Shown here in pieces: positions 45,204-60,431 of a stretch of DNA of 64,000 nt. Under the pieces are notes generated by a model. It made no database searches, was not told the origin of the DNA, and worked only from the letters and a program-made list of their open reading frames with translations. Numbering within the stretch: position 1 is the first letter of the stretch; each line of letters starts with the position of its first letter. A program made the position numbers and the translations under genes. The stretch is from Leuconostoc holzapfelii (GTDB lineage: Bacteria > Bacillota > Bacilli > Lactobacillales > Lactobacillaceae), in NCBI RefSeq assembly GCF_012396485.1, contig NZ_JAAXPO010000006.1:88285-152284 (forward strand). The letters run 5' to 3'.

Positions 45204-45233
45204 AAAACGCGCAATGTCGATTGCGCGTTTTTT
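45202..45233. terminator. Terminator of the aro operon and DUF2929 gene
   Basis: A 14-bp perfect stem (45202-45215 with 45220-45233), GTCG loop and A6/T6 flanks; works in both directions. Confidence 0.92.
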
Positions 45234-46119
45234 ATTTGCTCTGCCAAGCTTGCTGTAACTCTGACAACGTCAGTTGGCCGGGCGCACTCTCTGGCATCCC
45301 ACCCAATACTGCAAAGGTCATCTCAGCGCCATATTGATACCCCACAATGCGTGAGCGTTGCCCTAATATGCCCATACTGATGGTAATTAAGGGCTGTGAG
45401 ATATTGGCCGCTTGTGTCGCAGCCAGCAAACGATCAACATCACCCTCATCATGAGGTGTCACCGCTAATTTAATGATATCAGCCCCTGTTTGAGACATAT
45501 CTGCTAAGAAAGCAGGGACATTTGGTGTCTCATTTAAGTCATGATATGACATGATCACAGGCACACCGACGGCACGTGCGGCTGTCATAATTTTTTCACG
45601 AAGTTCTACTGCTAACGTATATTCGACATCAACGGCAGCGAAATGATACCCAGATTGTAACGCATTGACCACAAAAGTGGTATAAGCAAGTGGTGACATT
45701 TCCCCTTTACCACCTTGTGCTTGGGTCCGATAGGTCAAAATAATGGGAAAACTGCCGATTGTGTTAAAAACTGACCCAGTCAATTCCTTAATGATTTGTT
45801 GATTCATGATTGGCCAGTTCGCATTAAATTCTTGTTGCGCCTGATCCATCTCAGCCAGAAGCTTCGCTTCTGTCATCGCCGACACATCTTTTTGGGCAAT
45901 CTCTGCTTGAGCACCTGCTTTGACTTGTTGCCACATCACCGCCTGACTAAAATCATCGGCAATATAGTCCGCACGCCATTCGACAACATCTGGGTTTTGC
46001 GCCTGCAATTTATTGGCAAATGGCGTCAATTTGTCAGTTGGGCCAAGCATCAACGACACAGCAGTGATTGGCTTGCCATTGATGCTTTTAGGTAATTGTA
46101 ATAATTCACGTAAGGTCAT
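45232..46119 (-). CDS. aroD: 3-dehydroquinate dehydratase, type I
   Basis: Third shikimate-pathway step, forming 3-dehydroshikimate through a Schiff base. At 295 residues it is about 40 longer than usual type I enzymes. The extra length is a Gln/Ala-rich insert at about residues 65-115, between VVEWRADYIADDF and PIILTYRTQAQGGKG. The catalytic His lies in VIMSYHDLNETP and the Schiff-base Lys in ADIIKLAVTPHD. C-terminal MGILGQRSRIVGYQYGAEMTFAVLGGMPESAPGQ completes the fold. Last gene of the aro operon; it starts 4 bases inside the previous gene (ATGA overlap). Confidence 0.94.
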   Translation of the reverse strand: MTLRELLQLPKSINGKPITAVSLMLGPTDKLTPFANKLQAQNPDVVEWRADYIADDFSQAVMWQQVKAGAQAEIAQKDVSAMTEAKLLAEMDQAQQEFNANWPIMNQQIIKELTGSVFNTIGSFPIILTYRTQAQGGKGEMSPLAYTTFVVNALQSGYHFAAVDVEYTLAVELREKIMTAARAVGVPVIMSYHDLNETPNVPAFLADMSQTGADIIKLAVTPHDEGDVDRLLAATQAANISQPLITISMGILGQRSRIVGYQYGAEMTFAVLGGMPESAPGQLTLSELQQAWQSK

Positions 46120-46670
46120 TTAATTTGGTATACAACCCAAACCATTTGTGGACTTAATCGCTGTCGCACTTGGTACTTCGGGTCTTCACTTTCTGGTAAT
46201 TTTAAGAATTGCGCTTCTGATATAATTGTAAACCGATTTTGCGCTTTTATAAAGTCCGACATGGCCACGGGCTTGCTTGGTGCAAAAACAACTGAAGGTC
46301 CCCAAGCATTGTCTAAACCATTTGCTCGCAAGTATTGGGCCAGTAGCCCCTCAGTTGCCGCGTGGATAACCGCCACATTACGGGCATAAGCGACATTTTC
46401 CACAACAATCAATGTCATTAAAGGCAACGTAAACGTATCAACGATAGTCGCCTTTTCCCAAGATAAATAGTTAAAATTCGCCCAGTTCAAATCCGGTAAT
46501 CGGTTCGATTTAAATGCTGCTGGTACCAAGATTTGATCACCAGAAAAATGTGCCAAATTGGTTAAAATTTCTTCAAAGTCCTGGTGTAAGACCAAAGTTT
46601 GCGTTGTTTTGTAATCATTGGCTGCCTGTTCGGAATCCGTACCAACAGGCCCTAAGGTGTGTAGTTTCAT
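46116..46670 (-). CDS. Prephenate dehydratase-like protein (BacA-like), no ACT domain
   Basis: A 184-residue protein whose N-terminus LGPVGTDSEQAAN resembles the LGPEGTFSEEAA of prephenate dehydratase. It is shorter than PheA (about 280), has no C-terminal ACT domain, and I do not find the catalytic Thr-Arg-Phe motif; the matching region is NRFTIISEAQF. Short proteins of this fold include BacA, a prephenate decarboxylase of bacilysin synthesis. Its place between the chorismate-mutase fusion and aroD makes prephenate the likely substrate. Whether it makes phenylpyruvate (giving Phe) or something else is open. Coupled to both neighbours by 4-base overlaps. Confidence 0.75.
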   Translation of the reverse strand: MKLHTLGPVGTDSEQAANDYKTTQTLVLHQDFEEILTNLAHFSGDQILVPAAFKSNRLPDLNWANFNYLSWEKATIVDTFTLPLMTLIVVENVAYARNVAVIHAATEGLLAQYLRANGLDNAWGPSVVFAPSKPVAMSDFIKAQNRFTIISEAQFLKLPESEDPKYQVRQRLSPQMVWVVYQIK

Positions 46671-47467
46671 CGTTTTAACTGCTTATTTTCCTTGTTAATG
46701 GCCGAAGTTGTCAGAATCGTCATAATTTGGTCAATCAACTCATCGGTAATATCTAACGACTGTGCAAAATCATATTTCAATAAAGCACGCATGTTTTGCA
46801 TCCGGCCGACTTGAACAGTTGCCATGCCAAATTTTTCTTTGTATTGCGCTACGGCACCAACAACCTGCATCCGTTTTTCAATCGTCTGAAAAATTTGCCG
46901 GTCAAAAGCATCAATTTCCGAGCGTAATTGTAATAAGGCCAATTCGTCTTCGTGAGAACTAAACAACGCAATAATTTCTGCGGCAAGCCGTTCGGGCGTC
47001 TTGCCGACTGTTTCTACCGTAAAATCCGCTACACTTTGATATAACGGGTCTCGTAGTTGCCACAATTGAAAAAATTCAGCGGTTGACTTTTCTTGTAACA
47101 ACGGCCGTTGGCCTTCGCTGAGCAAGCGATTAATCGTGCTTTCCAAGTTCCCATGCAAATAGATAACGGTTGCTGGGGACGCCTTTAGAATCGCCCGATT
47201 TTCCGGTCGCTCAATCACGCCACCACCGGTTGCTACGATGCCATTAAACGTCTGTAAGTCGTCTAACACCTGTGTTTCCAGCGCACGAAAGGCGGCCTCG
47301 CCTTGCGTCGCAAAAATTTCTGGAATTGTTTGTCCAGCGCGGCGTTCAATTTCTGAATCGATGTCGATAAAACGCGCTTGATGTTGTCGGGCAATTTCCT
47401 GACCAACCGTCGTTTTCCCTGCGCCCATAAAACCAACTAATAGCAATGTTTCTGGTGTTGTTAACAT
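46667..47467 (-). CDS. aroK: Fusion of shikimate kinase and chorismate mutase
   Basis: A 266-residue two-domain enzyme. Residues 1 to about 165 are shikimate kinase: Walker A LVGFMGAGKTTVGQ, DIDSEIERRAGQTIPEIF, GGGVIERPENR and the lid GQRPLL. Residues about 175-260 are an AroQ-type chorismate mutase: LLQLRSEIDAFDRQIFQTIEKRMQVVGAVAQYKEKFG, with the conserved Arg, Asp and Lys of the helical fold. It thus acts twice in the pathway, on shikimate and on chorismate (to prephenate). No separate chorismate mutase is in the operon. It overlaps the next gene by 4 bases. Confidence 0.92.
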   Translation of the reverse strand: MLTTPETLLLVGFMGAGKTTVGQEIARQHQARFIDIDSEIERRAGQTIPEIFATQGEAAFRALETQVLDDLQTFNGIVATGGGVIERPENRAILKASPATVIYLHGNLESTINRLLSEGQRPLLQEKSTAEFFQLWQLRDPLYQSVADFTVETVGKTPERLAAEIIALFSSHEDELALLQLRSEIDAFDRQIFQTIEKRMQVVGAVAQYKEKFGMATVQVGRMQNMRALLKYDFAQSLDITDELIDQIMTILTTSAINKENKQLKR

Positions 47468-47480
47468 AATGATCGCTACC

Positions 47481-48320
47481 TCATAAATTTTGTCGTGCCT
47501 TTTGCGCAGATTGAATCAATCGCAACAATTGGTCAGTGTTTTGTGTGGCCAATGCCTGATTAAATGCGGTCAGTTCAGCAATTAATTGTTGATTACTGGC
47601 GATGACCGCAGCTTGATTACTCATTAAAACGTCCGTCCAAAGTTTGGGATCACTAGCAGCAATGCGCGTTGTATCTTTAAACCCGCCGGCCACGTATTGC
47701 CCAAATTCACTGGCATCACCCAACTGCTTAACTGCGGCATTCATCAGTGCAAAAGCCGCAATGTGCGGCACATCACTAATCATCGCCATTAAACGGTCAT
47801 GTGTGGTCACGTCAATTGTGGTAAAATTCGCCGCCAACGGGGCAAATAAGGCTTGCAATTTAGGTAAAACGGCCCGCCCTTTTTCATTGGGGATGAGGAA
47901 ATAAGGTGCTTGCTGATATAACTGGGAGTTGGCGGCAGTCACGCCGCTTAAATGCGTCCCGGCCATGGCATGGCCGCCAATAAAGGCGACATACCCCAGA
48001 TGCCTATCCACCTCAGTCAGAATGTCACGTTTAGTCGAGCCGGTATCCGTGATGATCACATCAGGCTTCAGCGGCGCTGCAGCCAATGTGTGAATGGCTT
48101 GGATAATCCCTGACACCGGTGTGGCTAGAATAATCACATCAGCTTGCGGTGCAACTGCGGTTAATTGCCCAGCAGTTTCAGCAACAATCCCCTGATCTAA
48201 GGCGCGTTTTAACGTCTCTGGGTCTTGATCAACGCCAATCACGTGATGTTCAGGTTGCGCATTTAAACACTGCGCCAATGACGCCCCCATTTCACCTAAC
48301 CCTTGGATGACAATTTTCAT
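47481..48320 (-). CDS. tyrA: Prephenate dehydrogenase
   Basis: Oxidises prephenate to 4-hydroxyphenylpyruvate for tyrosine. 279 residues: NAD-binding IQGLGEMGASLAQ at the N-terminus, VDQDPETL, ILATPVSGI, TDTGSTKRDI, GGHAMAGTHLSGVTAA and the helical C-domain with DVPHIAAFALMNAAVKQL and GGFKDTTRIAASDPKLW. No ACT domain, unlike some Firmicutes TyrA proteins. Its start overlaps the aroA stop by 4 bases. Confidence 0.95.
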   Translation of the reverse strand: MKIVIQGLGEMGASLAQCLNAQPEHHVIGVDQDPETLKRALDQGIVAETAGQLTAVAPQADVIILATPVSGIIQAIHTLAAAPLKPDVIITDTGSTKRDILTEVDRHLGYVAFIGGHAMAGTHLSGVTAANSQLYQQAPYFLIPNEKGRAVLPKLQALFAPLAANFTTIDVTTHDRLMAMISDVPHIAAFALMNAAVKQLGDASEFGQYVAGGFKDTTRIAASDPKLWTDVLMSNQAAVIASNQQLIAELTAFNQALATQNTDQLLRLIQSAQKARQNL

Positions 48321-49612
48321 CGCATCACCTGCATCAAATCAGCCAAAAATCCTGGATAAGAGACACTCATCGCATCTTCGCCAGTCATCACCACTTCCTG
48401 ATTAGCAATCAAAGCAGCCACCGCATTCATCATGCCAATCCGATGATCGCCATGCGTCTCTAATAGCGTTGAATCCGTACTGCCATGAAGTGGTGTGCCA
48501 CCGTGAATGATCATCCCATCTGGCAAGGCCTCAATATCAGCCCCCAGCTTCGTTAATTCCGCCACCACCGTGGCAATCCGGTCAGTTTCTTTCACGCGTA
48601 ACTCCGCTGCCCCTGAAATCACCGTATCGCCTTGCGCTTGCGTGGCAGCAAGCGCCAAAATTGGCATTTCGTCCACAGCGCTTGGAATATCAGCAGCCGT
48701 GATGTGAATCCCATGTAACGGTTGGGCCCTAACCGTAATATCTGCAGTTGGCTCATTGGTGTCGTCAATATTTGACAGCTGCAAATCAGCCCCCATACGC
48801 CGTAACAACCGTAAAACGCCATCGCGGGTCGGGTTAATACCCACCTGCTTCAACGTTAGATCAGAATTTGGCGTAATTAAAGCGGCCACCATGAAAAAGG
48901 CAGCACTCGAAATATCTGCAGGGACGACGACGTGTTGGCCAACCAGCGCTGGTTGGCGTGACACGGTAATCACCCCATTTTCAGATTGAATGTCACCACC
49001 AAATTGGCGCAGCATCCGTTCCGTATGGTCACGTGACGGCAAATTTTCAATAATTTTGGTTTGTCCAGTGGCTTGCATCCCCGCCAAAATCAGCGCACTT
49101 TTAACTTGCGCTGACGCCACTGGCATCTCATAGGTAATCCCAGTCAGCGCGTGATTGGCATGGATCACACCCGGTAATTTATCACCATCAGTTAAGGTAA
49201 TATTGGCCCCCATTTGCGCCAATGGCGTTAATACCCGTTGCATCGGCCGCTGACTTAAAGACGCATCGCCAAAAATAGCCAGCTCAAATGGTTGTTGACT
49301 CAACAACCCCATCAATAAACGGGTTGAAGTACCAGAATTGCCCATATCTAACGGTGCTTTGGGTGCCTGAAAATGCTCAAGCCCTTGGCCTTGAATGCGG
49401 ACACGAGTCCCAGTTTGTTCAATTTGGACCCCCAACTCGCGAAACACACCCATCGTGTGTAAGACATCATCAGAATCCAAAAAATTCTCAATGTCTGTGT
49501 GTCCTTGAGCTATCGCGCCAAACATCAAGGCGCGGTGTGAAATGGATTTATCCCCAGGCACTGTTAATTGCCCGTGCAGCCCCCTTTTTGGGGCAGGCGT
49601 CAATCGAATCAT
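48317..49612 (-). CDS. aroA: 3-phosphoshikimate 1-carboxyvinyltransferase (EPSP synthase)
   Basis: Joins shikimate-3-phosphate and PEP. 431 residues. N-terminal PGDKSISHRALMFGAIAQG, LDMGNSGTSTRLLMGLL (the TGNSGTS region), LPSRDHTERML and VKETDRIATVV are visible, and the C-terminal GDHRIGMMNAVAAL. The active-site glycine region reads LDMGNSGTSTR. A longer frame exists upstream, but AGGAGAGGCT directly before the ATG at 49612 decides the start. Confidence 0.96.
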   Translation of the reverse strand: MIRLTPAPKRGLHGQLTVPGDKSISHRALMFGAIAQGHTDIENFLDSDDVLHTMGVFRELGVQIEQTGTRVRIQGQGLEHFQAPKAPLDMGNSGTSTRLLMGLLSQQPFELAIFGDASLSQRPMQRVLTPLAQMGANITLTDGDKLPGVIHANHALTGITYEMPVASAQVKSALILAGMQATGQTKIIENLPSRDHTERMLRQFGGDIQSENGVITVSRQPALVGQHVVVPADISSAAFFMVAALITPNSDLTLKQVGINPTRDGVLRLLRRMGADLQLSNIDDTNEPTADITVRAQPLHGIHITAADIPSAVDEMPILALAATQAQGDTVISGAAELRVKETDRIATVVAELTKLGADIEALPDGMIIHGGTPLHGSTDSTLLETHGDHRIGMMNAVAALIANQEVVMTGEDAMSVSYPGFLADLMQVMR

Positions 49613-49657
49613 AGCCTCTCCTTTTCCTTTTGTTTGCGTACGATTTGACAATACTGA

Positions 49658-50836
49658 TTAAAAACGGCGAACTTCCTCACGATAAGCCGCGACTTGTTCC
49701 TTCATCCGGTCAATATTATCAGCATCAAACTTGTCCAAAACCGCCTTGGCTAACTCAATGGCCACCATGGCTTCGGCAATCACCGCCGCAGCCGTCACCG
49801 CCGTCGTATCGGAACGTTCAATGGACGCTTTGTGATCCTGATGCGTGTCAATATCAACCGATTGCATGGGACGATAGAGTGTGGGAATCGGCTTGACCAC
49901 ACCGCGCACGACAATGGCTTCACCAGTCGTCATGCCACCTTCAAAGCCACCCAAATTATCAGACCCACGATAAAAGCCTTTTTCCGCATCCCAGAAGATT
50001 TCATCCATCACTTGGTCGCCGTATTTTTCAGCATTGTCAAAGCCGCCACCAAATTGGACCCCTTTAAATGCGTTAATCCCGACAATAGCCCGCGCAATTT
50101 TGCCGTCCAATTTTTCATCAGCGGAAACGTAAGACCCTAAGCCAACCGGCATGCCAGTTGCAATCACTTGGACTTGACCACCCACCGTGTTGGCATCGCG
50201 TTTGGTTTTATCAATCACGTCACGAATAGCCGCATCAGCTGCAGCATCCAGGGCGCGCGTTTCAAAACTTTCCGTCACTTCACGCAGCGCCTGCAAATCA
50301 TGATACTGAGTGAGTTGGTTCAAATCCGATTTGGCTGGGCCCACATTGACCACAAACCCATGCACATCAACCCCGATTTCTGCCAAAAGTTTCTTCGCCA
50401 CAGCGCCAACCGCTACACGCATCGTGGTTTCGCGCGCAGAGGAGCGTTCTAATACATTTCGTAAATCATCATGATGGCGATACTTGATGCCCCCCACAAG
50501 ATCAGCGTGCCCTGGTCGTGGGCGTAACACTTTTCGGAGCGTATTTTCCGGTGTAGCCGGCGTGTTGGGCGCCATAATTTTAGACCAGTTATTATGATCA
50601 TCGTTGTGAACATTGAGGGTGATGGGTGAACCAAGCGTGTATTGATGCCGCACGCCCGTTAAAAATGTCACCGTGTCTGTTTCAATTTTTTGACGTTCGC
50701 CACGGCCGTAGCCCCGTTGACGGCGGGCGAGTTGTTCGTTAATATCTTCTTGGGTAATATGTAAGCCGGCAGGAATCCCTTCAATCACCGCAATTTCTTC
50801 TGGGCCATGGCTTTCGCCAGCAGTTGTATATCTCAT
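49658..50836 (-). CDS. aroC: Chorismate synthase
   Basis: Removes phosphate from EPSP to give chorismate, using reduced FMN. 392 residues: MRYTTAGESHGPEEIAVIEGIPAG, RRQRGYGRGERQKIETD, RPGHADLVGGIKY, ERSSARETTMRVAVGAVAKKLL, GSYVSADEKLDGKIARAI and DNLGGFEGGMTTGEAIVVRG. All family signatures are present. It lies 45 bases before aroA with no terminator. Confidence 0.97.
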   Translation of the reverse strand: MRYTTAGESHGPEEIAVIEGIPAGLHITQEDINEQLARRQRGYGRGERQKIETDTVTFLTGVRHQYTLGSPITLNVHNDDHNNWSKIMAPNTPATPENTLRKVLRPRPGHADLVGGIKYRHHDDLRNVLERSSARETTMRVAVGAVAKKLLAEIGVDVHGFVVNVGPAKSDLNQLTQYHDLQALREVTESFETRALDAAADAAIRDVIDKTKRDANTVGGQVQVIATGMPVGLGSYVSADEKLDGKIARAIVGINAFKGVQFGGGFDNAEKYGDQVMDEIFWDAEKGFYRGSDNLGGFEGGMTTGEAIVVRGVVKPIPTLYRPMQSVDIDTHQDHKASIERSDTTAVTAAAVIAEAMVAIELAKAVLDKFDADNIDRMKEQVAAYREEVRRF

Positions 50837-50879
50837 CGTCTTATTTTATCTTGTACGCATCGGCACAAGTCCTTTCAAA

Positions 50880-51947
50880 TCAAATTGAGGCCATGAATTC
50901 TGGCATGGCTGATAACGCTTTGGGGACAATAATGGGTTGGCCAACCTCAGCGAGAGCAACTAGGTTCAACGTTCCACCGTGATTTTTCTTATCATTGACC
51001 AAGCGGTCAAAAAAGGCCGGCGTACCAAGCAAATCAGAAGTGATTGGCAGCCCAACTGCCGTTAACCGAGATTGTAATGCTGGGACTAGGTCAGCTGGCG
51101 AAACACCGGCACGTACCATGCGTTCAGTCAACGCCATCATCCCAATCGCCACGGCTTCGCCATGCCGCAGATCCCCATGTGCCAGTAATTCAATCGCATG
51201 ACCTAACGTGTGACCAAAGTTGAGGAACTGCCGTTGACCGGCTTCTTTTTCATCCGCCATGACTACCGCTGCTTTGTAAGTAATAGCGCGCGCCGATAGT
51301 TCTTGGGCATGCGTGCGAATGTCAGTTATACTTTGAATTTTCCCCGTCAGGTCAAAGAATTCAGGGCCAGCTAACGCCGATGTCTTCACGACTTCAGCAT
51401 ACCCTTCCACCAAATCACGATCCGTTAACGTCTCTAAGTAAGTTTGGTCAACTAAGACCAAGTTTGGTTGATAAAAAGTCCCCGCAATATTTTTGGTTGC
51501 GCCTAGGTTAATGGCCGTTTTGCCGCCAACTGATGAATCTACTTGTGCCGTCAGGGAGGTTGCAATTTGAATATAGCCAATGCCACGCATATAAAGCGAA
51601 GCCACCACGCCAGCCAAATCACCAATCACACCACCGCCCAACGCCACCACCCCATCGCCACGGGTAAAACCGTGCTCAGCTAGTGCGCTAATTAAATCAC
51701 CAGCCACTTGGAGGGATTTTGACTGTTCCCCGGCTGGGACTTCAAGCGGTAACACTTGGAAACCAGCCGCTTCAAGTTGACGTGTCGTGTCGGCTAAATA
51801 AAGGGGGCCAACATGGCTATCGGTGATTAAGGCAATTTGACGTGGTGTCCAAACGGCCGCGATTTCTGCCCCAATTCGGGTATGCAGCGTGTCATTAATT
51901 TTCACGTCATATGCTTGTTGACCGACACTGACAGTTACAGTCGTCAT
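50880..51947 (-). CDS. aroB: 3-dehydroquinate synthase
   Basis: Closes DAHP to 3-dehydroquinate, with NAD and zinc. 355 residues: ALITDSHVGPLYL, EVPAGEQSKSLQVAGDL, GVVALGGGVIGDLAGVVASLYMRGI, IQIATSLTAQVDSSVGGKTAINLG, NFGHTLGHAIELLAHGDLRHGEAVAIGM. The ATG at 51947 has AAGGACAAACC upstream; an in-frame start eight codons earlier is less likely. Confidence 0.96.
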   Translation of the reverse strand: MTTVTVSVGQQAYDVKINDTLHTRIGAEIAAVWTPRQIALITDSHVGPLYLADTTRQLEAAGFQVLPLEVPAGEQSKSLQVAGDLISALAEHGFTRGDGVVALGGGVIGDLAGVVASLYMRGIGYIQIATSLTAQVDSSVGGKTAINLGATKNIAGTFYQPNLVLVDQTYLETLTDRDLVEGYAEVVKTSALAGPEFFDLTGKIQSITDIRTHAQELSARAITYKAAVVMADEKEAGQRQFLNFGHTLGHAIELLAHGDLRHGEAVAIGMMALTERMVRAGVSPADLVPALQSRLTAVGLPITSDLLGTPAFFDRLVNDKKNHGGTLNLVALAEVGQPIIVPKALSAMPEFMASI

Positions 51948-51972
51948 GGTTTGTCCTTTCTTATCTCTCACT

Positions 51973-52983
51973 TTATTGTGCGACTAAATCTGATTGCACG
52001 ACCTCACGCACCCGCCGTGCCTTGGCCGCCAACGTACTAAATTCAGCCGGCGTTAGGGCTTGTGCCCCGTCCACAAAGGCATGTGCCGGGTCGTTATGAA
52101 TTTCTGTCATCAACCCTTGGGCGCCTGCCGCAATGGCGGCCAAGGCTAGCGGTGCCACAAATTGTGCCACCCCAGCAGCATGTGAGGCATCGGCAATCAC
52201 TGGAAAATGAGTCAAACTCTGTAGAACCGGAATAGCAGAGACATCAATGGTGTTGCGTGTGTACTTATTATCATAGGTCCGAATACCACGCTCCATTAAA
52301 ATAATTTGCGTGTTCCCACCAGACACAATGTATTCGGCGGCGTTTAATAAATCATCGATTGTGGCAGACATGCCGCGCTTGAGCACCACTGGCTTGCGCT
52401 TTTGCCCCAGCGCTTTGAGCAAGGCAAAGTTTTGCATGTTGCGGGTGCCAACTTGGAAAATATCCGTATATTGGTCGACAAGGTCAACATCACGCGTATC
52501 CAAGATTTCGGTGACCATATCCATCCCTAACGCATCCGCCGCCGCGCGATGCGCCTTTAGCCCGGCCTCGCCGTTACCTTGGTAAGAGTATGGGGACGTG
52601 CGTGGCTTAAACGCGCCACCCCGTAAGATAGTTGCCCCGGCCTTTTTAACTGCTTCACCCATGGCCATCACGTGCGCTGGACTTTCAATGGCATCTGGCC
52701 CAGCCATAAAGACGAAATGTTCGCCACCAATGATTGAATGTTTGGTTGTAATCACCGTATCTTCTGGATGAAAATCACGTGATGAGGCAATAGCGGTATG
52801 GTGTTTGGTGATAATGTCAACGATATCCGCTTTAAATGGCGCGAGTGTTTCATCAGATAGGGTTTTAACGCCCGCTAAGGCCACACGGTTATTGTGGACA
52901 AAGACTGGTTTGAGCGGATCACCCGTCGTCAAGTTTTCAGCGAGTTGTTGTGCAGTTGTCTTGTTTGTTGTGACGATAATCAT
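51973..52983 (-). CDS. aroF: 3-deoxy-7-phosphoheptulonate (DAHP) synthase, type I beta
   Basis: Commits PEP and erythrose-4-phosphate to aromatic synthesis. 336 residues: an N-terminal ferredoxin-like regulatory region (about 1-70) as in Thermotoga-type enzymes, then the barrel with FMAGPDAIESPAHVMAMGEAVKKAGATILRGGAFKPRTSPYSYQG, VTEILDTRDVDLV, QVGTRNMQNFALLKALG, VVLKRGMSATIDDLL and DASHAAGVAQFV. No chorismate mutase domain is fused to it. Feedback through the N-terminal domain is likely from the family; the effector is unknown here. Confidence 0.94.
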   Translation of the reverse strand: MIIVTTNKTTAQQLAENLTTGDPLKPVFVHNNRVALAGVKTLSDETLAPFKADIVDIITKHHTAIASSRDFHPEDTVITTKHSIIGGEHFVFMAGPDAIESPAHVMAMGEAVKKAGATILRGGAFKPRTSPYSYQGNGEAGLKAHRAAADALGMDMVTEILDTRDVDLVDQYTDIFQVGTRNMQNFALLKALGQKRKPVVLKRGMSATIDDLLNAAEYIVSGGNTQIILMERGIRTYDNKYTRNTIDVSAIPVLQSLTHFPVIADASHAAGVAQFVAPLALAAIAAGAQGLMTEIHNDPAHAFVDGAQALTPAEFSTLAAKARRVREVVQSDLVAQ

Positions 52984-53813
52984 TTTATTTTTCCTCGAAT
53001 TGTTTCTGCCATCAATTGGCGATCAGCTGGTTGGTTAAACCAGTATTCAAAACTTAACGCACCTTGGTTCACCAACATCGCCAACCCATTTTGCGTGGGC
53101 AATTGACGACTGGCAGCGGCACGTAATAAGCCTGTTTGTTGGTTACGATAAATCATATCTACCACTAGCGTATGTTGTGGTAAAAGACCAATTTGGTAAT
53201 CCGTTAATAAGGTGCGGGCATCATTCATCCCCACGGTTGTCGCGTTAATCAGCAAATCAGCTTGTTGTAGTGCGGCAGAAAGGGTTTGATTGTCGGCCAA
53301 ATCAGCCAGTTGCCCAATGCCTTGGCTCAGATAAGCCACGGTCGTTTCCCGCTGGGACCAATCCAGATGCGCCCGGTTAAACACGGTTAACTGCCGCACC
53401 CCATAGTGTTGTGCAGTGGCCATCACGGCACGCGCAGCCCCACCGGTGCCGAGCAACACCACCCGTTCATGCGGTTGGTTGCGTGGGATACTTTGCCAAA
53501 AACCATCCCCGTCTGTGCTGGTCCCGATCAAGTGACCGCCCACATTTTTCACGGTATTCACGGCTTGTAAACGTTGCGCTAGTGGTGTGAGTTCATCTAA
53601 ATACGGGATAATGGCTGATTTATGCGGGGTCGACACATTGAACCCACCAACTGATAACACCCGCATACCTGCCACGGCCGCATCAAGTTGTGCGGGGGCG
53701 ACATCAAATGCTTGGTAATACGCATCAATTTGCCGTGCGGCCATCATCTTATTTTGCATCACTGGTGATAGCGAATGCGTCGCCGGTTGGGCAATCAAAC
53801 CATAAATTGTCAT
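52980..53813 (-). CDS. aroE: Shikimate dehydrogenase
   Basis: Reduces 3-dehydroshikimate to shikimate with NADPH. 277 residues: GLIAQPATHSLSPVMQNKMM at the N-terminus (substrate Ser), NVSTPHKSAIIPYLDEL (catalytic Lys), GTSTDGDGFW, LLGTGGAARAVMATAQ (NADP loop), NATTVGMND and NQGALSFEYW. Its start lies one base before the tkt stop region and its end overlaps aroF by 4 bases, so it is tightly packed in the operon. Confidence 0.95.
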   Translation of the reverse strand: MTIYGLIAQPATHSLSPVMQNKMMAARQIDAYYQAFDVAPAQLDAAVAGMRVLSVGGFNVSTPHKSAIIPYLDELTPLAQRLQAVNTVKNVGGHLIGTSTDGDGFWQSIPRNQPHERVVLLGTGGAARAVMATAQHYGVRQLTVFNRAHLDWSQRETTVAYLSQGIGQLADLADNQTLSAALQQADLLINATTVGMNDARTLLTDYQIGLLPQHTLVVDMIYRNQQTGLLRAAASRQLPTQNGLAMLVNQGALSFEYWFNQPADRQLMAETIRGKIK

Positions 53814-53814
53814 A

Positions 53815-55755
53815 TTAACTCCCTAAATCTTGCATAATTTTTTCAGTCAACACTTCTGCAACTAACCCGACATCTGCCAGAACGGCTTGCGGTGCTGCAC
53901 TAATACCGAAATGATCTAGCCCAAATATCAAGCCATCATCGCCGGCAACAGCCTGCCAGCCAAGTGTTGTGCCTGCTTCTATTATCACATTTTTAGCCGA
54001 ATCTTTGGGGATGATTACGGCTTTTTTTGACTGATCAAGTGATAGAAAGCGTTGCAAATTTGGCATTGAAATCACACGACTTGGTTGTGGGAGTTGTTGA
54101 CTCACAGCAAGGGCTAATTGCACTTCTGACCCAGTAGCAATCAAATTAATGGTAGCGTCTGGTGCTGCGACAATTTGCGCCGCCCCAGCTGTCATAGCCT
54201 GCTGCGCTTGTGCTGGCGTGCCTTGCATACCTAGACTGCCACGACCTAAGATCAATACCGTCGGGGTATCGGTTGACGAAAGTGCTTGGTGCCAAGCTGC
54301 TGCCACCTCTTCAGCTGTCCCTGGTCGCAACACGTTGACCCCAGGAATCAGGCGTAAGCCCATTAACTGCTCGACAGGTTGATGCGTTGGGCCATCTTCA
54401 CCGACTGTGACACTATCATGGGTAAAGACATAAATCACCGGTACCTGCTGCAAAGCGCTCAAGCGAATCGCCGCCTTCATATAATCCGAAAACGCCAAGA
54501 ACGTACTGCCAAACACTTTTGTCCCGCCGTGGAGTGCAATCCCATTCATCACTGCCCCCATACCAAATTCACGGACACCAAAGGCAATGTTGCGACCCGT
54601 GCGATTGCCTGGTGCAAATAACGGTGAGTCGACAAGGGTCGTTTGCGTGGAACTGGCTAGATCTGCTGCCCCACCCCACAATTGTGGCCAAGTTTGCGCC
54701 ACTGCTTGTAATGTGATTTTCCCAATTGTGCGCGCTGCTTGGTGCTGCGCGTTGTCTTGCAGTTTTGGTGGTTGTGCAGTTTGTGCTTGCGTCCAGGCAA
54801 GATAAGTCTGTAACTCAGCCGTGCTGGGCGTTGGTTGTTCAGCCAGACGTTGCGCAATATGATCTCGCATTTGATCCATCAACGCCGCATCTAGACTGAA
54901 TTCAGGTTGCATTGTGACAGCTAAGTCATCAGCCAATGCCTGCAGTTGCGCCGGTGTCAGCGGTGTCCCATGAGCTTGATGTGTCCCAGCATAAGGTCCT
55001 GAATCACCAATGGTTGTCCGCACCGCAATCAACGTGGGTTCCGGTGACAACTTGGCATTTTCAATGGCATCATGAATGGCAGCCAGATCATTGCCATCGG
55101 TAATGCGTCGTACATCCCAACCATAACTGGCAAAACGGGCCACGTTGTCTGCTGTATCGGCGCGCGCCCGCTGCCCATCTAAACTCACCTGATTGTCATC
55201 GTATAACACAATCAGCTTTGCCAACCCTTGTTGTCCAGCTAGCGTTGCAACTTCATGACTGATGCCTTCCATCAAGTCGCCATCCCCCACTAGTGCATAA
55301 GTGAAGTGATCAATCACCGTTGGAAATTGCGCATGGAGTTTGGCTTCTGCCATCGCCATGCCCACCGCCATACCAAGTCCTTGGCCCAGTGGGCCAGTCG
55401 TCGCATCCACGCCGGGCGTTACCCCCACTTCGGGATGACCGGGCGTTTTTGAATGCGGTTGGCGAAACGCAGCTAAATCAGCCGCCGACAACGCAAAACC
55501 TGCGGCATGCAACGTCGCATATAACAAGGCTGATCCATGTCCTGCAGATAATACAAACCGATCACGATTGCTGGCGTTAGGTTGCGTCGGATCTATAACC
55601 AATTGGTTGGCATACAATTCATAAAGCATTGGTGCTGCACCCAACGCAATCCCTGGATGTCCTGACCCCGCTTTGGTTATCATTTGGTTGGCGAGGCGTC
55701 GTAATTGATTAATTGTCTGTGTGGCAATATCAGGTTTTATTAATGTTTCACTCAT
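53815..55755 (-). CDS. tkt: Transketolase
   Basis: A thiamine-diphosphate enzyme interconverting sugar phosphates and supplying erythrose-4-phosphate. 646 residues: ITKAGSGHPGIALGAAPMLYELY, PGHPEVGVTPGVDATTGPLGQGLGMAVGMAMAEA, the ThDP motif LVGDGDLMEGISHEVA...DDNQVSLDG, and FGVREFGMGAVMNGIALHGG, THDSVTVGEDGPTHQPVEQL. It is the first structural gene of the aro operon, directly behind the attenuator, so it is probably dedicated to aromatic synthesis. Whether another tkt copy serves pentose metabolism cannot be told from this window. Confidence 0.96.
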   Translation of the reverse strand: MSETLIKPDIATQTINQLRRLANQMITKAGSGHPGIALGAAPMLYELYANQLVIDPTQPNASNRDRFVLSAGHGSALLYATLHAAGFALSAADLAAFRQPHSKTPGHPEVGVTPGVDATTGPLGQGLGMAVGMAMAEAKLHAQFPTVIDHFTYALVGDGDLMEGISHEVATLAGQQGLAKLIVLYDDNQVSLDGQRARADTADNVARFASYGWDVRRITDGNDLAAIHDAIENAKLSPEPTLIAVRTTIGDSGPYAGTHQAHGTPLTPAQLQALADDLAVTMQPEFSLDAALMDQMRDHIAQRLAEQPTPSTAELQTYLAWTQAQTAQPPKLQDNAQHQAARTIGKITLQAVAQTWPQLWGGAADLASSTQTTLVDSPLFAPGNRTGRNIAFGVREFGMGAVMNGIALHGGTKVFGSTFLAFSDYMKAAIRLSALQQVPVIYVFTHDSVTVGEDGPTHQPVEQLMGLRLIPGVNVLRPGTAEEVAAAWHQALSSTDTPTVLILGRGSLGMQGTPAQAQQAMTAGAAQIVAAPDATINLIATGSEVQLALAVSQQLPQPSRVISMPNLQRFLSLDQSKKAVIIPKDSAKNVIIEAGTTLGWQAVAGDDGLIFGLDHFGISAAPQAVLADVGLVAEVLTEKIMQDLGS

Positions 55756-55768
55756 TATTTTCCCTCAT

Positions 55769-55807
55769 AAAAAAATCGTGCTCGGGGTGTAACACCCGGC
55801 ACGATTT
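55769..55807 (-). terminator. Second leader terminator, directly before tkt
   Basis: AAATCGTGC pairs with GCACGATTT, extended inside by CGGGGTG/CACCCG around a TAA loop, and followed by U7. The U-run ends only a few bases before the tkt ribosome site (GAGGG). Confidence 0.88.
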
Positions 55808-55829
55808 ACCACAACAGTTTGACTGTTAA

Positions 55830-55867
55830 AATAAAAAGCCACTAAGTGTTACATTCCACTTAGTGAC
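55830..55867 (-). terminator. Attenuator terminator of the aro operon
   Basis: mRNA arms GUCACUAAGUG and CACUUAGUGGC pair over 11 bp (one G-U), loop of 8 bases, then UUUUUAUUUU. The 5' arm CUAAGUG is also complementary to CACUUAG in the 3' arm of the preceding hairpin, so the two folds exclude each other. Confidence 0.85.
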
Positions 55868-55869
55868 CC

Positions 55870-55975
55870 AACCTTGAAAAACTTCTGGCCGCTAAGTGCG
55901 TCGATGACCGACGCACTTAACATGCGACGGTGCTACATAAACCAGAAGTAGTAATAACTATTGTTTTTCAAGATT
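55870..55975 (-). promoter_or_regulatory. Attenuation folding region of the aro leader
   Basis: Three elements. An 11-bp hairpin TAAGTGCGTCG/CGACGCACTTA (55893-55919). A long helix in which the peptide-coding segment AATCTTGAAAAAC (55975-55963) pairs with GTTTTTCAAGGTT just before the terminator, extended by TTCTGG with CCAGAA. In that helix the Tyr codons are bulged out. A 7-bp alternative pairing with the terminator arm. A ribosome on the Tyr-Phe-Trp codons would block the long helix. Confidence 0.7.
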
Positions 55976-55986
55976 GTTTTGTTCAT
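55933..55986 (-). CDS. Aromatic leader peptide MNKTILKNNSYYYFWFM
   Basis: A 17-codon ORF that starts about 23 bases after the predicted transcription start of the aro operon. Codons 11-16 read TAT TAC TAC TTC TGG TTT (Tyr-Tyr-Tyr-Phe-Trp-Phe), then ATG and TAG. All three end products of the operon are sensed in six neighbouring codons, as expected for a leader peptide in ribosome-mediated attenuation. The ribosome site is modest (ACGAG, about eight bases before the ATG). The run of rare aromatic residues at exactly this place is very unlikely by chance. The role is inferred from layout. Confidence 0.85.
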   Translation of the reverse strand: MNKTILKNNSYYYFWFM

Positions 55987-56015
55987 GATTTTTCTCGTTC
56001 TTATTTGATAATCTT

Positions 56016-56044
56016 ACTATAACGTTGAAAATGAAAATTGTCAA
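56016..56044 (-). promoter_or_regulatory. Promoter of the aro operon
   Basis: On the minus strand a perfect TTGACA (56044-56039), 17 bases and TATAGT (56021-56016). Start predicted near 56009, giving a leader of about 250 bases before tkt. Confidence 0.8.
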
Positions 56045-56068
56045 CACTAAATTAAAAATGTGTGATAA

Positions 56069-56614
56069 TTATTTAATGTATTTACGAATTGTCTGGTACA
56101 CGACAGCGACCACATAAACGCCGATAACGCGATCAAGGTAATCTGTCCCGACCTGAACCAACAAGACTGCCCCCACTTCATTCATGCCAAAACCATGAAG
56201 GACTTGTACCAACATGCTTGAGCCAGAAGATGTAATACCGTGGAATAAAATAACCGTAATCATTGTGCTCACAACTGTAGCAGGTAATGAAATGACGAAT
56301 GCCAGCCACCAAATATTCTTGACATCGGTGGCTTTAAACCTTTTATACACCAAACCTGCGACAATGGCTGTGGTAATTTGACTCGGCATATAATAAATCG
56401 AGAATAAATCCCCGGTGGTGCCATTAATTAAGGCTGTCAACACCCCCGTGATAACCCCGCCAATTGGCCCAAAGAACGCACTGCCTAACAATGTCCCAAT
56501 CGTATCAAGATAAATTGGCAGACGTGTATAAAGGGCCAAATGGCCACCCACAATGTTAATCACAATAAAAAGCGCAATTAGTGCAATTTTTTGTGCGGAA
56601 AACTGTTTTGTCAT
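56069..56614 (-). CDS. ECF transporter S component, substrate unassigned
   Basis: A 181-residue membrane protein with five to six spans, the size of substrate-binding S components of energy-coupling-factor vitamin/nucleoside importers. The motif LPIYLDTIGTLLGSAFFGPIGGVITGVLTALINGTTGD is typical of one S-component group, and the first helix has a small-residue pattern. It needs the shared EcfA/A'/T module, not in this window. It overlaps the nucleoside hydrolase gene by 4 bases, so the two act together: uptake of a nucleoside-like compound and release of its base. It ends about 25 bases before the aro promoter. Confidence 0.85.
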   Translation of the reverse strand: MTKQFSAQKIALIALFIVINIVGGHLALYTRLPIYLDTIGTLLGSAFFGPIGGVITGVLTALINGTTGDLFSIYYMPSQITTAIVAGLVYKRFKATDVKNIWWLAFVISLPATVVSTMITVILFHGITSSGSSMLVQVLHGFGMNEVGAVLLVQVGTDYLDRVIGVYVVAVVYQTIRKYIK

Positions 56615-57606
56615 GATAATCGCTCCAAGTCTGTCGCGATGTTATCAAGTTCTTTTTCAATTGTTGTCACATCGCGTGTTAATAAACCACCCACAATATA
56701 GGCCATGGCCCGTTTTGCGTCAATTTGCTGTAAAATTTTGGCATTGGCTGGACGTTGCCAAAAATCAGCCCCGTCCACAATACTTTGACCCAAGGCAATC
56801 CCTGACGTGACCACCGTCACATATTTTTCGATGGTGCTTGCCAATTCGGGATACAAGGCGTAGACAATGACCAACGGATCATTGATCACGGCCCCCAAGA
56901 CATGTTCTTGGGCCCAATGGAAATCAAAGTAAAACGGCAAAATCTGTTCAATTAAGGCTGACTTATCGGCAGCCAAATAATGCATCATTTGCAAAATATT
57001 GGGCGTCATGACAATTTTACGCGTCACGTCCAGTGGTACCAATTCAATCAGCAATGGACTGTTTTGGAACACATAATCGGCCGCATCGGGATCGACCCAA
57101 AAGTTGTATTCAGCCACCGGTGACGTGTTGCCATTTGTCTGATAGGCGCCGCCCATCACAATTAAACGCGACACGTGTGACCAAAGTTCTGGTTGCGTTT
57201 TGAGCGATTGGGCAACATTGGTTAATGGCCCTAACGCCATAAACCAAACATCCTGATGCGCTGATAATAAGGCTTCATACCCTGCTTGTGCATCTAATGG
57301 CGACGCACTGGCTTCGGTCACGGGTGGCAAATGGCTTTCACCCATACCATCCATCCCATGGGTATCTTGGGCGCTGACATAGTCATGCACCCATGGCTTC
57401 GTCGCCCCAGCAAAGACTGGGATATCTAACCGATCGACTTCACGCAAGACTTTTAACGCATTGGCGACGCCAATCTCTGTGGGGACGTTACCGGCAACAA
57501 TTGAAATCCCAATGACCTCAATCATTGGTGATTGCAACGCGACCAGTAATGCGAGGCTATCATCAATACCGGGATCGGCATCGATAATCACTTGATGTTT
57601 TTGCAT
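56611..57606 (-). CDS. Nucleoside hydrolase
   Basis: Cleaves the N-glycosidic bond of ribonucleosides. 331 residues with the calcium-site motif DADPGIDDSLALL at the N-terminus, DTHGMDGMGE, WFMALGPLTNVA, VMGGAYQTNGNTSPVAEYNFWVDPDAA and NDPLVIVYAL. Specificity (uridine, inosine or modified nucleosides such as queuosine) cannot be set from sequence. Pairing with an S component fits salvage of an external nucleoside. The start has GTAGGAGAGATA before the ATG. Confidence 0.93.
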   Translation of the reverse strand: MQKHQVIIDADPGIDDSLALLVALQSPMIEVIGISIVAGNVPTEIGVANALKVLREVDRLDIPVFAGATKPWVHDYVSAQDTHGMDGMGESHLPPVTEASASPLDAQAGYEALLSAHQDVWFMALGPLTNVAQSLKTQPELWSHVSRLIVMGGAYQTNGNTSPVAEYNFWVDPDAADYVFQNSPLLIELVPLDVTRKIVMTPNILQMMHYLAADKSALIEQILPFYFDFHWAQEHVLGAVINDPLVIVYALYPELASTIEKYVTVVTSGIALGQSIVDGADFWQRPANAKILQQIDAKRAMAYIVGGLLTRDVTTIEKELDNIATDLERLS

Positions 57607-57630
57607 TATCTCTCCTACCTTTCAAGGGTT

Positions 57631-57666
57631 CTTGGTTTTTTATCCTGGGCAAGTTTTCTGCCGAGG
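57631..57666 (-). promoter_or_regulatory. Possible small pseudoknot in the nucleoside hydrolase leader
   Basis: mRNA arms CCTCGG (57666-57661) and CCCAGG (57649-57644) can pair with one mismatch. CTTG at the end of the loop can pair with CAAG after the A-rich linker ATAAAAAAC. This is the H-type layout of preQ1-I aptamers, but the conserved UUC-type loop is not clear. Tentative. Confidence 0.25.
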
Positions 57667-57710
57667 TTTTCACTATTTTTGTATATCGCTCATAATAAGC
57701 AACGAATACT

Positions 57711-57739
57711 ATTATATCAGTGTTTTCATGGTTTTCAAA
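57711..57739 (-). promoter_or_regulatory. Promoter of the nucleoside hydrolase operon
   Basis: On the minus strand TTTGAA (57739-57734), 17 bases, TATAAT (57716-57711). The implied leader is about 97 bases, long enough for an RNA switch. Confidence 0.6.
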
Positions 57740-57782
57740 CAACAAACAAAATCACGATGTTTAATAATGTTTCACAACAAAG

Positions 57783-57803
57783 GGCTACAAAAAGGCTACA
57801 AAT
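57783..57803 (+). repeat. Tandem direct repeat GGCTACAAA
   Basis: GGCTACAAA occurs twice, 12 bases apart start to start. It lies at the boundary between host genes and the prophage side. Such spaced repeats can be integrase arm-binding sites, but this is only suggestive. Confidence 0.35.
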
Positions 57804-57813
57804 TAAGGCAATA

Positions 57814-57855
57814 AAAAACACCCAACCAGGTATTCCAGTTAGGCGGGTTTTAAAT
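57814..57855 (-). terminator. Terminator after the csbD gene
   Basis: An imperfect stem with AACCC / GGGTG bases and several G-U pairs, followed by U6 on the minus strand. Confidence 0.6.
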
Positions 57856-58073
57856 TACTTATCAATTTCTTTCTTGCTGTCTTCTTTGTAGTCGTCCAGA
57901 GTATCTTTGACGGCTTCCTTTACATCAGAGAATGTTTCCTTTACTTTTCCAAGAACACCTTGAGCCTTACCTTCTGCCTCACGTGTCTGGTCCCCAGTAA
58001 CTTTGCCTTCTACTTCTTTTGCCTTACCAGCAACTTGGTCTTTGGCGCTATCAAACTTTTCTTCGACTGACAT
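57855..58073 (-). CDS. CsbD family stress-related protein
   Basis: A 72-residue, highly charged, all-helical hydrophilic protein of the CsbD family: VEEKFDSAKDQVAGKAKEVE followed by GKVTGDQTREAEGKAQG and a long acidic helix. Family members are abundant stress proteins of unknown action. The start has AAGGAGATC upstream, with an extended -10 (TGGTATCAT) further up. It lies between host genes and the prophage lysis genes, and could be host DNA or prophage cargo. Confidence 0.88.
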   Translation of the reverse strand: MSVEEKFDSAKDQVAGKAKEVEGKVTGDQTREAEGKAQGVLGKVKETFSDVKEAVKDTLDDYKEDSKKEIDK

Positions 58074-59158: not shown

Positions 59159-59171
59159 AATAGCCTCCTAA

Positions 59172-59591
59172 TTAAGCCGTAGGCGCTTGTGCTGTTTCAG
59201 GTGCGTTAGACACCACCGCCTCTGCTTTCGCGAGTTCTTCAGCACTCACAAGTGGCTTCACTGCACCTAATGCGCCGTTAGCCTTTTCATGTGCATAAGC
59301 CGTTTTGATATACGACAAAATCTGCGCTTCCGTGAAGTTATCGCCGATTTTATTTTCATCAAGTCGTGCCTTTAATTCGGCAGCGGCTGCTTGCTGTTGC
59401 ACTGCTCCATTGCCTAAGAATGCTTGTGCGGTCAAGACGGCTTGGCTTGCAAACTCAAGCGCTTTCTTGATATTCTCATTCTTTTCGGTAGAGGCTTTAA
59501 AATTCAAAAACTTTGACAGTCCGAATCCGCCTCCTGCTGCAACAAAAACTGCTACTGCTGTGTTCGCTAACTTTAAAATTTCATTCAACAT
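59172..59591 (-). CDS. Phage holin, LLH-type
   Basis: A 139-residue protein with one N-terminal membrane segment (about 8-27, AVAVFVAAGGGFGLSKFL), then a soluble helical domain and an Ala-rich tail. This matches the phage_holin LLH class. It lies 13 bases before the endolysin gene and directly after a second holin-type gene. Holins form the membrane lesion for lysis timing. Confidence 0.8.
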   Translation of the reverse strand: MLNEILKLANTAVAVFVAAGGGFGLSKFLNFKASTEKNENIKKALEFASQAVLTAQAFLGNGAVQQQAAAAELKARLDENKIGDNFTEAQILSYIKTAYAHEKANGALGAVKPLVSAEELAKAEAVVSNAPETAQAPTA

Positions 59592-60270: not shown

Positions 60271-60271
60271 C

Positions 60272-60418: not shown

Positions 60419-60431
60419 AATTTCTCCCTTT

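What the first reader, a model, noticed from the sequence alone, without database searches (positions are those of the whole stretch)
55830..56044. Ribosome-mediated attenuator with a Tyr-Phe-Trp leader peptide controlling the whole aromatic operon
Seen: a TTGACA-N17-TATAGT promoter, a short ORF MNKTILKNNSYYYFWFM with six consecutive aromatic codons, an 11-bp hairpin, an intrinsic terminator whose 5' arm (CUAAGUG) is complementary to CACUUAG of that hairpin, and a helix between the peptide-coding bases and bases just before the terminator. Known: classical attenuation by stalled ribosomes is described mainly in proteobacteria and actinobacteria, while Firmicutes aromatic genes usually use T-boxes or TRAP. 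Inferred: a ribosome short of charged tRNA-Tyr, -Phe or -Trp stalls on this run, alters folding and lets transcription reach tkt and the aro genes. One leader that samples all three end products of the pathway is unusual.
Basis: partly seen in the sequence, partly recalled or inferred. Interest (0 to 1): 0.93.

Follow-up and report, generated by a model that had tools for sequence, protein, structure and literature searches.

The report
Aromatic amino acid ribosome-sensing RNA relay
In front of genes for the pathway that leads to tyrosine, phenylalanine and tryptophan, Leuconostoc and many of its lactobacillus relatives carry a tiny reading frame packed with codons for those amino acids, followed by a chain of hairpins; a ribosome that stalls there for lack of any one of them would likely flip the chain and let the genes be transcribed.

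Summary
The leader (56044-55769, minus strand) has a near-consensus promoter, a 17-codon ORF with Tyr-Tyr-Tyr-Phe-Trp-Phe, and a fold far beyond chance (z -8.15). A covariance model hits 107 of 397 family genomes at E<=0.3; 109 of 110 hits parsed encode an aromatic-run ORF. They precede tkt, aroE, aroF, aroC, an aminotransferase and transporters. Over 21 representatives of 20 sequence clusters (16 for 2:3), the clamp 1:1' and the antiterminating helices 2:3, 4:5 and 6:7 pair better within a leader than between leaders (p 7.6e-5 to 9.5e-7); two control pairings do not. Computed folding favours the 'on' helices with a ribosome on the aromatic codons and the 'off' hairpin without one. Best reading: a ribosome-mediated attenuator of his/trp logic, extended into a two-register hairpin relay. 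It is predicted, not tested in cells. In the window's own leader the last relay step (6:7) is weak and the Shine-Dalgarno is poor.

The parts
56016..56044 (-). promoter TTGACA-N17-TATAGT
   Evidence: 11 of 12 consensus matches; promoter-like pair upstream of 88 of 109 leaders by a simple pattern
55933..55986 (-). leader peptide ORF MNKTILKNNSYYYFWFM*
   Evidence: third-position bias over the last 12 codons of 17 Leuconostoc leaders, differences by codon position 4/9/24; Shine-Dalgarno pattern in 78 of 109 leaders, 8 of 17 Leuconostoc, not in the window's own
55939..55956 (-). run of six aromatic codons (segment 1, 55949-55940, lies in it)
   Evidence: the run holds Tyr, Phe and Trp in 105 of 109 leaders, Tyr and Phe only in 4
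55924..55931 (-). segment 2, ACCGUCGC, directly after the stop codon; lies inside the footprint of a ribosome at the stop
   Evidence: 2:3 pairing in the window's nascent RNA falls once the P-site reaches Trp15; 2:3 is co-conserved
55907..55921 (-). segment 3, 5' arm of hairpin 3:4; also pairs with segment 2
55887..55903 (-). segment 4, 3' arm of hairpin 3:4; antiterminator strand that can pair with segment 5
55870..55890 (-). segment 1', pairs with the aromatic codons (clamp 1:1')
55836..55869 (-). terminator T1 (segments 5:6) with U-tail
55813..55827 (-). small spacer hairpin between T1 and T2
55769..55807 (-). second terminator-like hairpin T2 (segments 7:8) with seven U
53815..55755 (-). 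tkt, transketolase, first gene behind the leader
   Evidence: best NCBIfam hit transketolase, 653.7 bits against cut-off 682.25
45232..53813 (-). aroE, aroF (DAHP synthase), aroB, aroC, aroA, tyrA, aroK-chorismate mutase, an unassigned 184-aa ORF, aroD
   Evidence: best families; several below the curated cut-off; that they form one operon is inferred from spacing

Best explanation
This leader is most likely a ribosome-mediated transcription attenuator: it encodes a 17-residue peptide with the run Tyr-Tyr-Tyr-Phe-Trp-Phe, and a ribosome stalled there for want of any one of the three charged tRNAs is predicted to move a chain of hairpins from a terminating into an antiterminating register. Off register (no ribosome, or ribosome at the stop codon): hairpin 3:4, terminator 5:6 and terminator 7:8, with the clamp 1:1' added when no ribosome is there. 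On register (ribosome stalled on the run): 2:3, 4:5 and, in many relatives, 6:7, so that neither terminator can close. A ribosome at the stop codon would cover segment 2, so 3 pairs with 4 and transcription ends. Because the run holds all three codons, the leader would act as an OR gate on the common pathway, which one T-box with one specifier codon cannot do. Shown: the sequence features, their conservation, the co-conservation of both registers, and the dependence of computed folding on ribosome position. Inferred: translation, stalling, antitermination, and control of all the genes behind it.
For: Leader in G000 and 17 of 18 other Leuconostoc species; the 18th has its contig cut inside tkt. 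R2 model: 107 of 397 family genomes at E<=0.3; 91 of 149 genomes with aroF against 16 of 248 without. 109 of 110 hits parsed have an aromatic-run ORF (L197 was rejected by eye before). Swap test, own pairing stronger than the mean of swapped pairings: 1:1' 20 of 21, 2:3 15 of 16, 4:5 20 of 21, 6:7 19 of 21; controls 2:5 8 of 16 and 4:7 10 of 21. In L179 the Trp codon is replaced (YYYFYFF) and 1' has the matching sequence: CUUCUAUUUCUU with GAGAAAUAGAAG. Footprint folding (93 leaders, 18 clusters; RNA ending after segment 5), mean pairs without ribosome, stalled on the first three aromatic codons, at stop: 3:4 10.1, 4.5, 11.2; 4:5 0.4, 6.6, 4.8; 2:3 2.0, 5.7, 0 (the zero follows from the footprint). 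Third-position bias in the peptide. The genome uses T-boxes elsewhere (20 matches, 2 over cut-off), one before a tryptophan synthase beta-like gene, but none was found at 44000-58000.
Against: No RNA, ribosome or expression data. The window's ORF has a weak Shine-Dalgarno; only 8 of 17 Leuconostoc leaders match the pattern. At equilibrium the off register wins once segment 6 is made in 8 of 9 leaders examined, so antitermination would have to be kinetic. In the ninth (L191) 6:7 beats 7:8 at every ribosome position and without a ribosome, which is no switch. Of 17 Leuconostoc leaders 8 show almost no shift to 2:3 (0.3 pairs or less). 2:3 rises over the no-ribosome state in only 13 of 18 clusters, and the contrast in 4:5 between stalled and at-stop is modest (12 of 18, p 0.041). 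6:7 is weak in the window's own leader and its two nearest relatives. L075 has a broken clamp, L179 a weak 2:3, L133 a weak 6:7. Of 36 aroF genomes without a model hit whose upstream region I could read, 21 showed no aromatic leader. Segments were picked by rule and representatives by hand; 7 leaders failed the rule and 6 clusters were left out. Clusters share ancestry, so the p-values are optimistic.
Confidence: 0.8

Rival explanations
1. A plain two-state attenuator: only hairpin 3:4, T1 and the antiterminator 4:5 matter; T2 is an independent second terminator and 6:7 is an echo of repeated arm sequences.
For: In the window T1 has its own U-tail and 6:7 is weak, -8.0 against shuffled -6.3. 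Arms of 3:4, T1 and T2 share the same CUAAGUG/CACUUAG core in many Leuconostoc leaders.
Against: 6:7 is co-conserved across lineages with different sequences (19 of 21), also in the 10 representatives whose 5:6 has no U-tail (p 0.005), where T2 is the only terminator that the ribosome signal could reach.
Confidence: 0.3
2. A translation-independent sensor (T-box, protein-bound leader or unknown riboswitch) in which the aromatic codons are incidental.
For: Strong conserved RNA structure. T-boxes are common in this genome. The window's ORF has a weak Shine-Dalgarno.
Against: No Rfam family matches the leader even at E<=1. The run keeps Tyr and Phe, and Trp in 105 of 109 leaders, through changes of sequence, and codon third positions vary most.
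Confidence: 0.07
3. A leader whose nascent peptide itself stalls the ribosome in response to a small molecule, as in drug-induced erm leaders, rather than tRNA shortage.
For: The peptide end NNSYYYFWFM is nearly fixed in Leuconostoc.
Against: Across genera the peptide varies except for aromatic richness (runs such as YYYYWF, FYYYWF, SYYW, YFYFWFF, YYYGYAWF), and the first genes examined are largely aromatic amino acid genes.
Confidence: 0.06
4. Chance or conserved intergenic DNA without regulatory role.
For: Conservation within Leuconostoc alone could reflect short divergence.
Against: 0 of 100 shuffles give such an ORF; z -8.15; matching changes between paired segments over many genera.
Confidence: 0.01

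Closest known systems
his operon attenuator of enteric bacteria (recalled: segments A:B, C:D, E:F against B:C, D:E)
   Same: Leader peptide with codons of the pathway product; alternating pairing registers; no-ribosome state also terminates.
   Different: Here the coding bases clamp onto a segment beyond the 3:4 hairpin, three amino acids are sampled, and one or two terminators follow, linked by 6:7.
phe, pheST and trp leader attenuators of gamma-proteobacteria (recalled)
   Same: Phe or Trp codon-rich leader peptide, antiterminator against terminator.
   Different: As recalled, those sample one amino acid and do not control the common shikimate operon.
uORFC-13-1 motif before aroF of Acholeplasma (PMC8632094, section 26 read)
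   Same: Candidate uORF attenuator before the first shikimate gene, with an adjacent terminator stem.
   Different: Described with at least one Phe residue from a run of U; no Tyr-Trp run mentioned; Acholeplasma and environmental sequences. Its alignment was not compared here.
His leader peptides in Firmicutes (PMC2965389 and PMC9413887, passages read)
   Same: Ordinary leader-peptide attenuation in place of T-boxes in Firmicutes.
   Different: One amino acid; other pathway; other lineages (Bacillus group, Eubacteriales, Erysipelotrichales).
branched-chain leader attenuators of Staphylococcus aureus and Listeria (PMC6123439, passages read)
   Same: Ribosome-mediated attenuation in Firmicutes with experimental support, according to that review; several related amino acids.
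   Different: Branched-chain pathway; no relay in the passages I read.
ermK leader (PMC5418344, passages read; its two terminators recalled)
   Same: Stalled ribosome on a leader ORF prevents transcription termination.
   Different: Stalling by a macrolide, not by uncharged tRNA.

Membership tests
ribosome-mediated transcription attenuator | short ORF with a run of codons for the products of the genes behind it | tested here: met
   translation itself not shown, Shine-Dalgarno of the window's ORF weak
ribosome-mediated transcription attenuator | intrinsic terminator between the ORF and the first gene | tested here: met
   T1 and T2, by sequence
ribosome-mediated transcription attenuator | mutually exclusive antiterminator whose strand is freed by a stalled ribosome | tested here: met
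   by sequence and computed folding only: 2:3 and 4:5 against 3:4 and 5:6; 8 of 17 Leuconostoc leaders do not switch in the equilibrium test
ribosome-mediated transcription attenuator | a ribosome at the stop codon masks the segment needed for antitermination | tested here: met
   assumed footprint P-site +15 covers 55931-55924; the zero for 2:3 at the stop follows from this assumption, but that the stretch after the stop is complementary to segment 3 is a result (15 of 16)
ribosome-mediated transcription attenuator | read-through rises on starvation for the coded amino acids | not testable with these tools
   needs expression data
T-box riboswitch | match to the T-box model (RF00230) | tested here: not met
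   no T-box match in window 44000-58000 at E<=1; the only match listed was isrJ elsewhere, E 0.93
TRAP-bound leader | array of spaced GAG/UAG triplets bound by TRAP | not tested
   no call made for the triplet array or for a TRAP gene
drug-sensing leader (erm type) | conserved arrest peptide sequence independent of charged tRNA | tested here: not met
   peptide varies across genera except for aromatic richness
uORFC-13-1 motif | match to its published alignment | not tested
   alignment not available here; no Rfam match of any kind at the leader

The most novel reading that the evidence does not exclude
The leader is the founding example of an aromatic attenuation regulon of Lactobacillales: one RNA that reads the charging of three tRNAs at once and hands the ribosome's position down a chain of up to four hairpins in two alternating registers, so that one stalled ribosome opens two terminators, or one that lies over 100 nucleotides away. 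It would govern the shikimate operons, an aminotransferase and several transporters, while T-boxes in the same cells guard single-amino-acid genes.
Probability: 0.58. Interest if true: 0.85.

Novelty: new variant of a known kind. Interest (0 to 1): 0.73.

Why it matters
It would give the lactic acid bacteria a missing regulator for their shikimate operons, and a reason why a leader peptide is used there although these cells are rich in T-boxes: only a codon run can sense three end products at once. The natural series, with and without a U-tail on the first hairpin, with or without segment 2, and with Trp replaced by Tyr, makes co-evolution of a codon run with RNA folding testable. The relay would also be a compact example of signal passing over several RNA hairpins.

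Tried and rejected
Considered and set aside: T-box or another known RNA family (no match at the leader at E<=1); chance. Some model hits were rejected on reading: L081 and L083 (no aromatic ORF), L197, L222 (outside the family). Five of the 107 genomes with R2 hits (G026, G131, G293, G301, G414) were never read, and some second hits of read genomes were not fetched either. Dropped before counts: two reverse-strand hits (L151, L122) and L077, which shows the run but in which the script found no start codon; seven leaders whose hairpins the rule could not assign (L146, L158, L170, L171, L178, L183, L198). Of 102 assigned leaders in 26 clusters, 21 representatives of 20 clusters were chosen by hand for the swap test (L054 and L073 come from one cluster); six clusters with doubtful assignment (L172, L176, L180, L182, L193, L196) were left out. 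In the footprint test the clusters of L172, L176 and L196 were still included. The column-wise covariation of the Leuconostoc alignment is thin (7 of 44 pairs with a change on both sides), so I relied on the swap test between genera. I did not model folding kinetics. Literature: ten searches listed no paper that, by title and abstract or by the passages I read, reports an aromatic leader peptide in Lactobacillaceae. Panina et al. 2003 (aromatic regulation in low-GC Gram-positives) was seen only in reference lists, was not read, and may bear on this, so an earlier mention cannot be excluded.

Full report
What is there. The minus strand at 56044-55769 holds a promoter, a 17-codon ORF ending in Ser-Tyr-Tyr-Tyr-Phe-Trp-Phe-Met, and a chain of hairpins before tkt. 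The leader up to T1 folds at -67.4 kcal/mol, 8.15 standard deviations below shuffles, 0 of 200 as good. In that fold the aromatic codons pair with a stretch just before T1 (1:1'), the hairpin 3:4 lies inside, and T1 stands beside it. A second hairpin with seven U (T2) follows before the tkt ribosome-binding site. No Rfam family matches the leader; the only match listed in 44000-58000 at E<=1 was isrJ elsewhere. In the 64 kb window and 100 dinucleotide shuffles of it, a short ATG ORF with six aromatic codons in a row occurs once, here.

The genes behind it. In order: transketolase, shikimate dehydrogenase, DAHP synthase, 3-dehydroquinate synthase, chorismate synthase, 3-phosphoshikimate 1-carboxyvinyltransferase, prephenate dehydrogenase, a shikimate kinase joined to a chorismate mutase domain, an unassigned 184-aa ORF and 3-dehydroquinate dehydratase (some below the curated cut-offs). 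That is the common pathway plus at least the Tyr branch. A gene that reads as tryptophan synthase beta elsewhere in the genome (PALP domain) lies behind a T-box match (L209). Of 20 T-box matches in the genome, 2 are over the family cut-off.

Conservation in Leuconostoc. The DNA search found the leader in G000 and 17 of 18 other species of the genus, and in single genomes of two more genera. A pattern scan of named genomes lists, among its 23 stretches, L. lactis, L. citreum, L. carnosum, L. gelidum, L. pseudomesenteroides and two Convivina species; other stretches in that list are unrelated. In G013 the contig starts inside tkt. The peptide end is nearly fixed, while third codon positions vary most: differences by position 4, 9 and 24 over the last 12 codons of 17 leaders. 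A Shine-Dalgarno pattern precedes 78 of 109 leaders but only 8 of 17 Leuconostoc ORFs, and not the window's own, which has AGAACGAG-like bases only. In one genome (G009) and in Convivina the leader stands directly before aroE (by eye).

Conservation beyond. A covariance model from 19 leaders (R1) gave matches in 39 of 397 family genomes at E<=0.01; a second model (R2) gave 107 of 397 at E<=0.3, in 21 of 40 genera. These E-values alone would allow many false hits, so the DNA was read: 109 of 110 hits parsed have an aromatic-run ORF, with Tyr, Phe and Trp in 105 and only Tyr and Phe in 4. The models include the coding bases, so the ORF is not wholly independent of the search; the genes behind it are. 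First genes among the examples tested are tkt, aroE, aroF, aroC, an aminotransferase, an MFS transporter and a PTS EIIC-like membrane protein (many more by eye). Ten genomes show two such leaders (G031, G112, G235, G299, G302, G326, G347, G350, G376, G385; places, ORFs). R2 hits are found in 91 of 149 genomes with aroF and 16 of 248 without. Of the 58 aroF genomes without a hit I fetched 38; 36 could be read 5 kb upstream (G013 is cut, G034 was fetched at the wrong place). Of those, 15 hold a more divergent aromatic ORF, with ends such as RFYSYW*, RYYWFS* or SWYYYYFEK*, before an aro gene or tkt, judged by eye; 21 do not, 11 of them in one genus (g18). Among 20 of these upstream regions one T-box reached the gathering score, not next to the aro gene. 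Outside the family, of 256 genomes of the order (which include some of the family), three hits lie in other families: one before an aminotransferase (L221) and one before a TrpX-like substrate-binding protein (L223) carry aromatic ORFs, the third (L222) does not.

Both registers are conserved. I cut each leader into segments by rule and compared pairing energies within a leader with those of swapped partners from other leaders. The off clamp 1:1' is stronger within than between in 20 of 21, the on helices 2:3 in 15 of 16, 4:5 in 20 of 21, 6:7 in 19 of 21; controls 2:5 and 4:7 are at chance (8 of 16, 10 of 21). The clearest single case is L179, where the Trp codon is gone (YYYFYFF) and the partner strand matches the new codons over 12 pairs. 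The off hairpins 3:4, 5:6 and 7:8 were used to define the segments and so are not independent evidence. The clusters share ancestry, so the p-values are optimistic.

Ribosome position and folding. I assumed a right edge at P-site +15. A ribosome at the stop then masks 55938-55923, which holds all of segment 2. In the window's nascent RNA that ends after segment 3, 2:3 has 7.9 expected pairs without ribosome, 7.7 with Phe14 in the P-site, 4.9 with Trp15, 3.0 with Phe16. In RNA that ends after segment 5, averaged over 18 clusters (93 leaders), 3:4 has 10.1 pairs without ribosome, 4.5 when stalled on the first aromatic codons, 11.2 at the stop; 4:5 has 0.4, 6.6 and 4.8; 2:3 has 2.0, 5.7 and 0, the last by construction of the footprint. 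So the predicted on state needs a ribosome on the run, and a leader without ribosomes is off. Limits: once segment 6 exists the off state is the equilibrium in 8 of 9 leaders, and in the ninth (L191) 6:7 forms at every ribosome position; 8 of 17 Leuconostoc leaders barely switch, 2:3 rises over the no-ribosome state in 13 of 18 clusters, and the stalled against at-stop contrast in 4:5 is modest (12 of 18).

The relay. In 34 of 102 leaders the 5:6 hairpin lacks a U-tail by my count, while 98 of 102 have one after 7:8. In the 10 representatives without it 6:7 is still co-conserved (p 0.005). This fits a relay in which ribosome position is passed from 2:3 to 4:5 to 6:7 and only the last hairpin terminates. 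In several aminotransferase leaders (such as L169, L174) segments 2 and 3 are absent, the peptide runs several codons past the aromatic run, and the antiterminator strand lies around the stop codon: a shorter version of the same logic, by my reading. In the window's own leader T1 has a U-tail and 6:7 is weak (-8.0 against shuffled -6.3), as in its two nearest relatives, while 14 of the other 18 leaders of the two Leuconostoc-like clusters have a 6:7 that fewer than 5% of shuffles reach.

What it works like, and what it is. It works like the his or trp attenuators (segment scheme recalled), and meets the sequence and structure features that define ribosome-mediated attenuation; the physiological feature is untested. 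It is not a T-box by the model test. Leader-peptide attenuators in Firmicutes are described for His (PMC2965389, PMC9413887, passages) and branched-chain genes (PMC6123439, passages), and a uORF motif before Acholeplasma aroF has been proposed (PMC8632094, section 26). I found no report of this Lactobacillaceae aromatic leader in ten searches of an open-access library, most results of which I saw as listings only; the 2003 survey by Panina and colleagues was not read.

Verdict. The finding is confirmed and extended: a new, widespread variant of a known kind, with strong comparative support for two competing registers and no experimental test yet.

Noticed in passing
window 46667-47467 (-): Shikimate kinase followed by a chorismate mutase-like domain in one protein (residues about 8-174 and 178-263).
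   Followed up: partly
window 46116-46670 (-): 184-aa ORF in a place where a prephenate dehydratase gene might be expected; no NCBIfam or Pfam family at E<=0.001.
   Followed up: partly
window 45232-46119 (-): 3-dehydroquinate dehydratase matches its best family only from residue 113 of 295, so it may have a long N-terminal extension.
   Followed up: no
L170 555-1436 (+), L179 2-946 (-): PTS EIIC-like membrane proteins (PF13303) behind aromatic leaders, which hints at a role with aromatic compounds.
   Followed up: partly
L223: An aromatic-run ORF (RYYYFSFFR) before a TrpX-like tryptophan transporter protein (318 bits, below its cut-off of 390) in another family of the order.
   Followed up: partly
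L072 / L034: G283, placed in genus g18, has a Leuconostoc-like leader, although 11 other g18 genomes read lack one before aroF and two (G189, G428) have one before a PTS EIIC-like gene; transfer or misplacement possible.
   Followed up: no
L209, L203, L210: T-box matches in the window's genome before a tryptophan synthase beta-like gene and, by eye, genes resembling pheS and tyrS.
   Followed up: partly
window 58208-63614 (-): Large ORFs that read like phage tail and lysis genes beyond the aro region (by eye).
   Followed up: no
L247 (G106) and L264 (G136): Aromatic-run ORFs ending TRYYWFS before tkt and, in L247, also before aroE, besides the aminotransferase leaders of the same genomes: up to three leaders per genome.
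   Followed up: no
leaders L054, L076 and others: A C-A mismatch sits at the same place of helix 4:5 in lineages with different sequences (CACUUAG-C-GGCC with GGUC-A-CUAAGUG; CUGUG-C-GACC with GGUC-A-CACAG).
   Followed up: no
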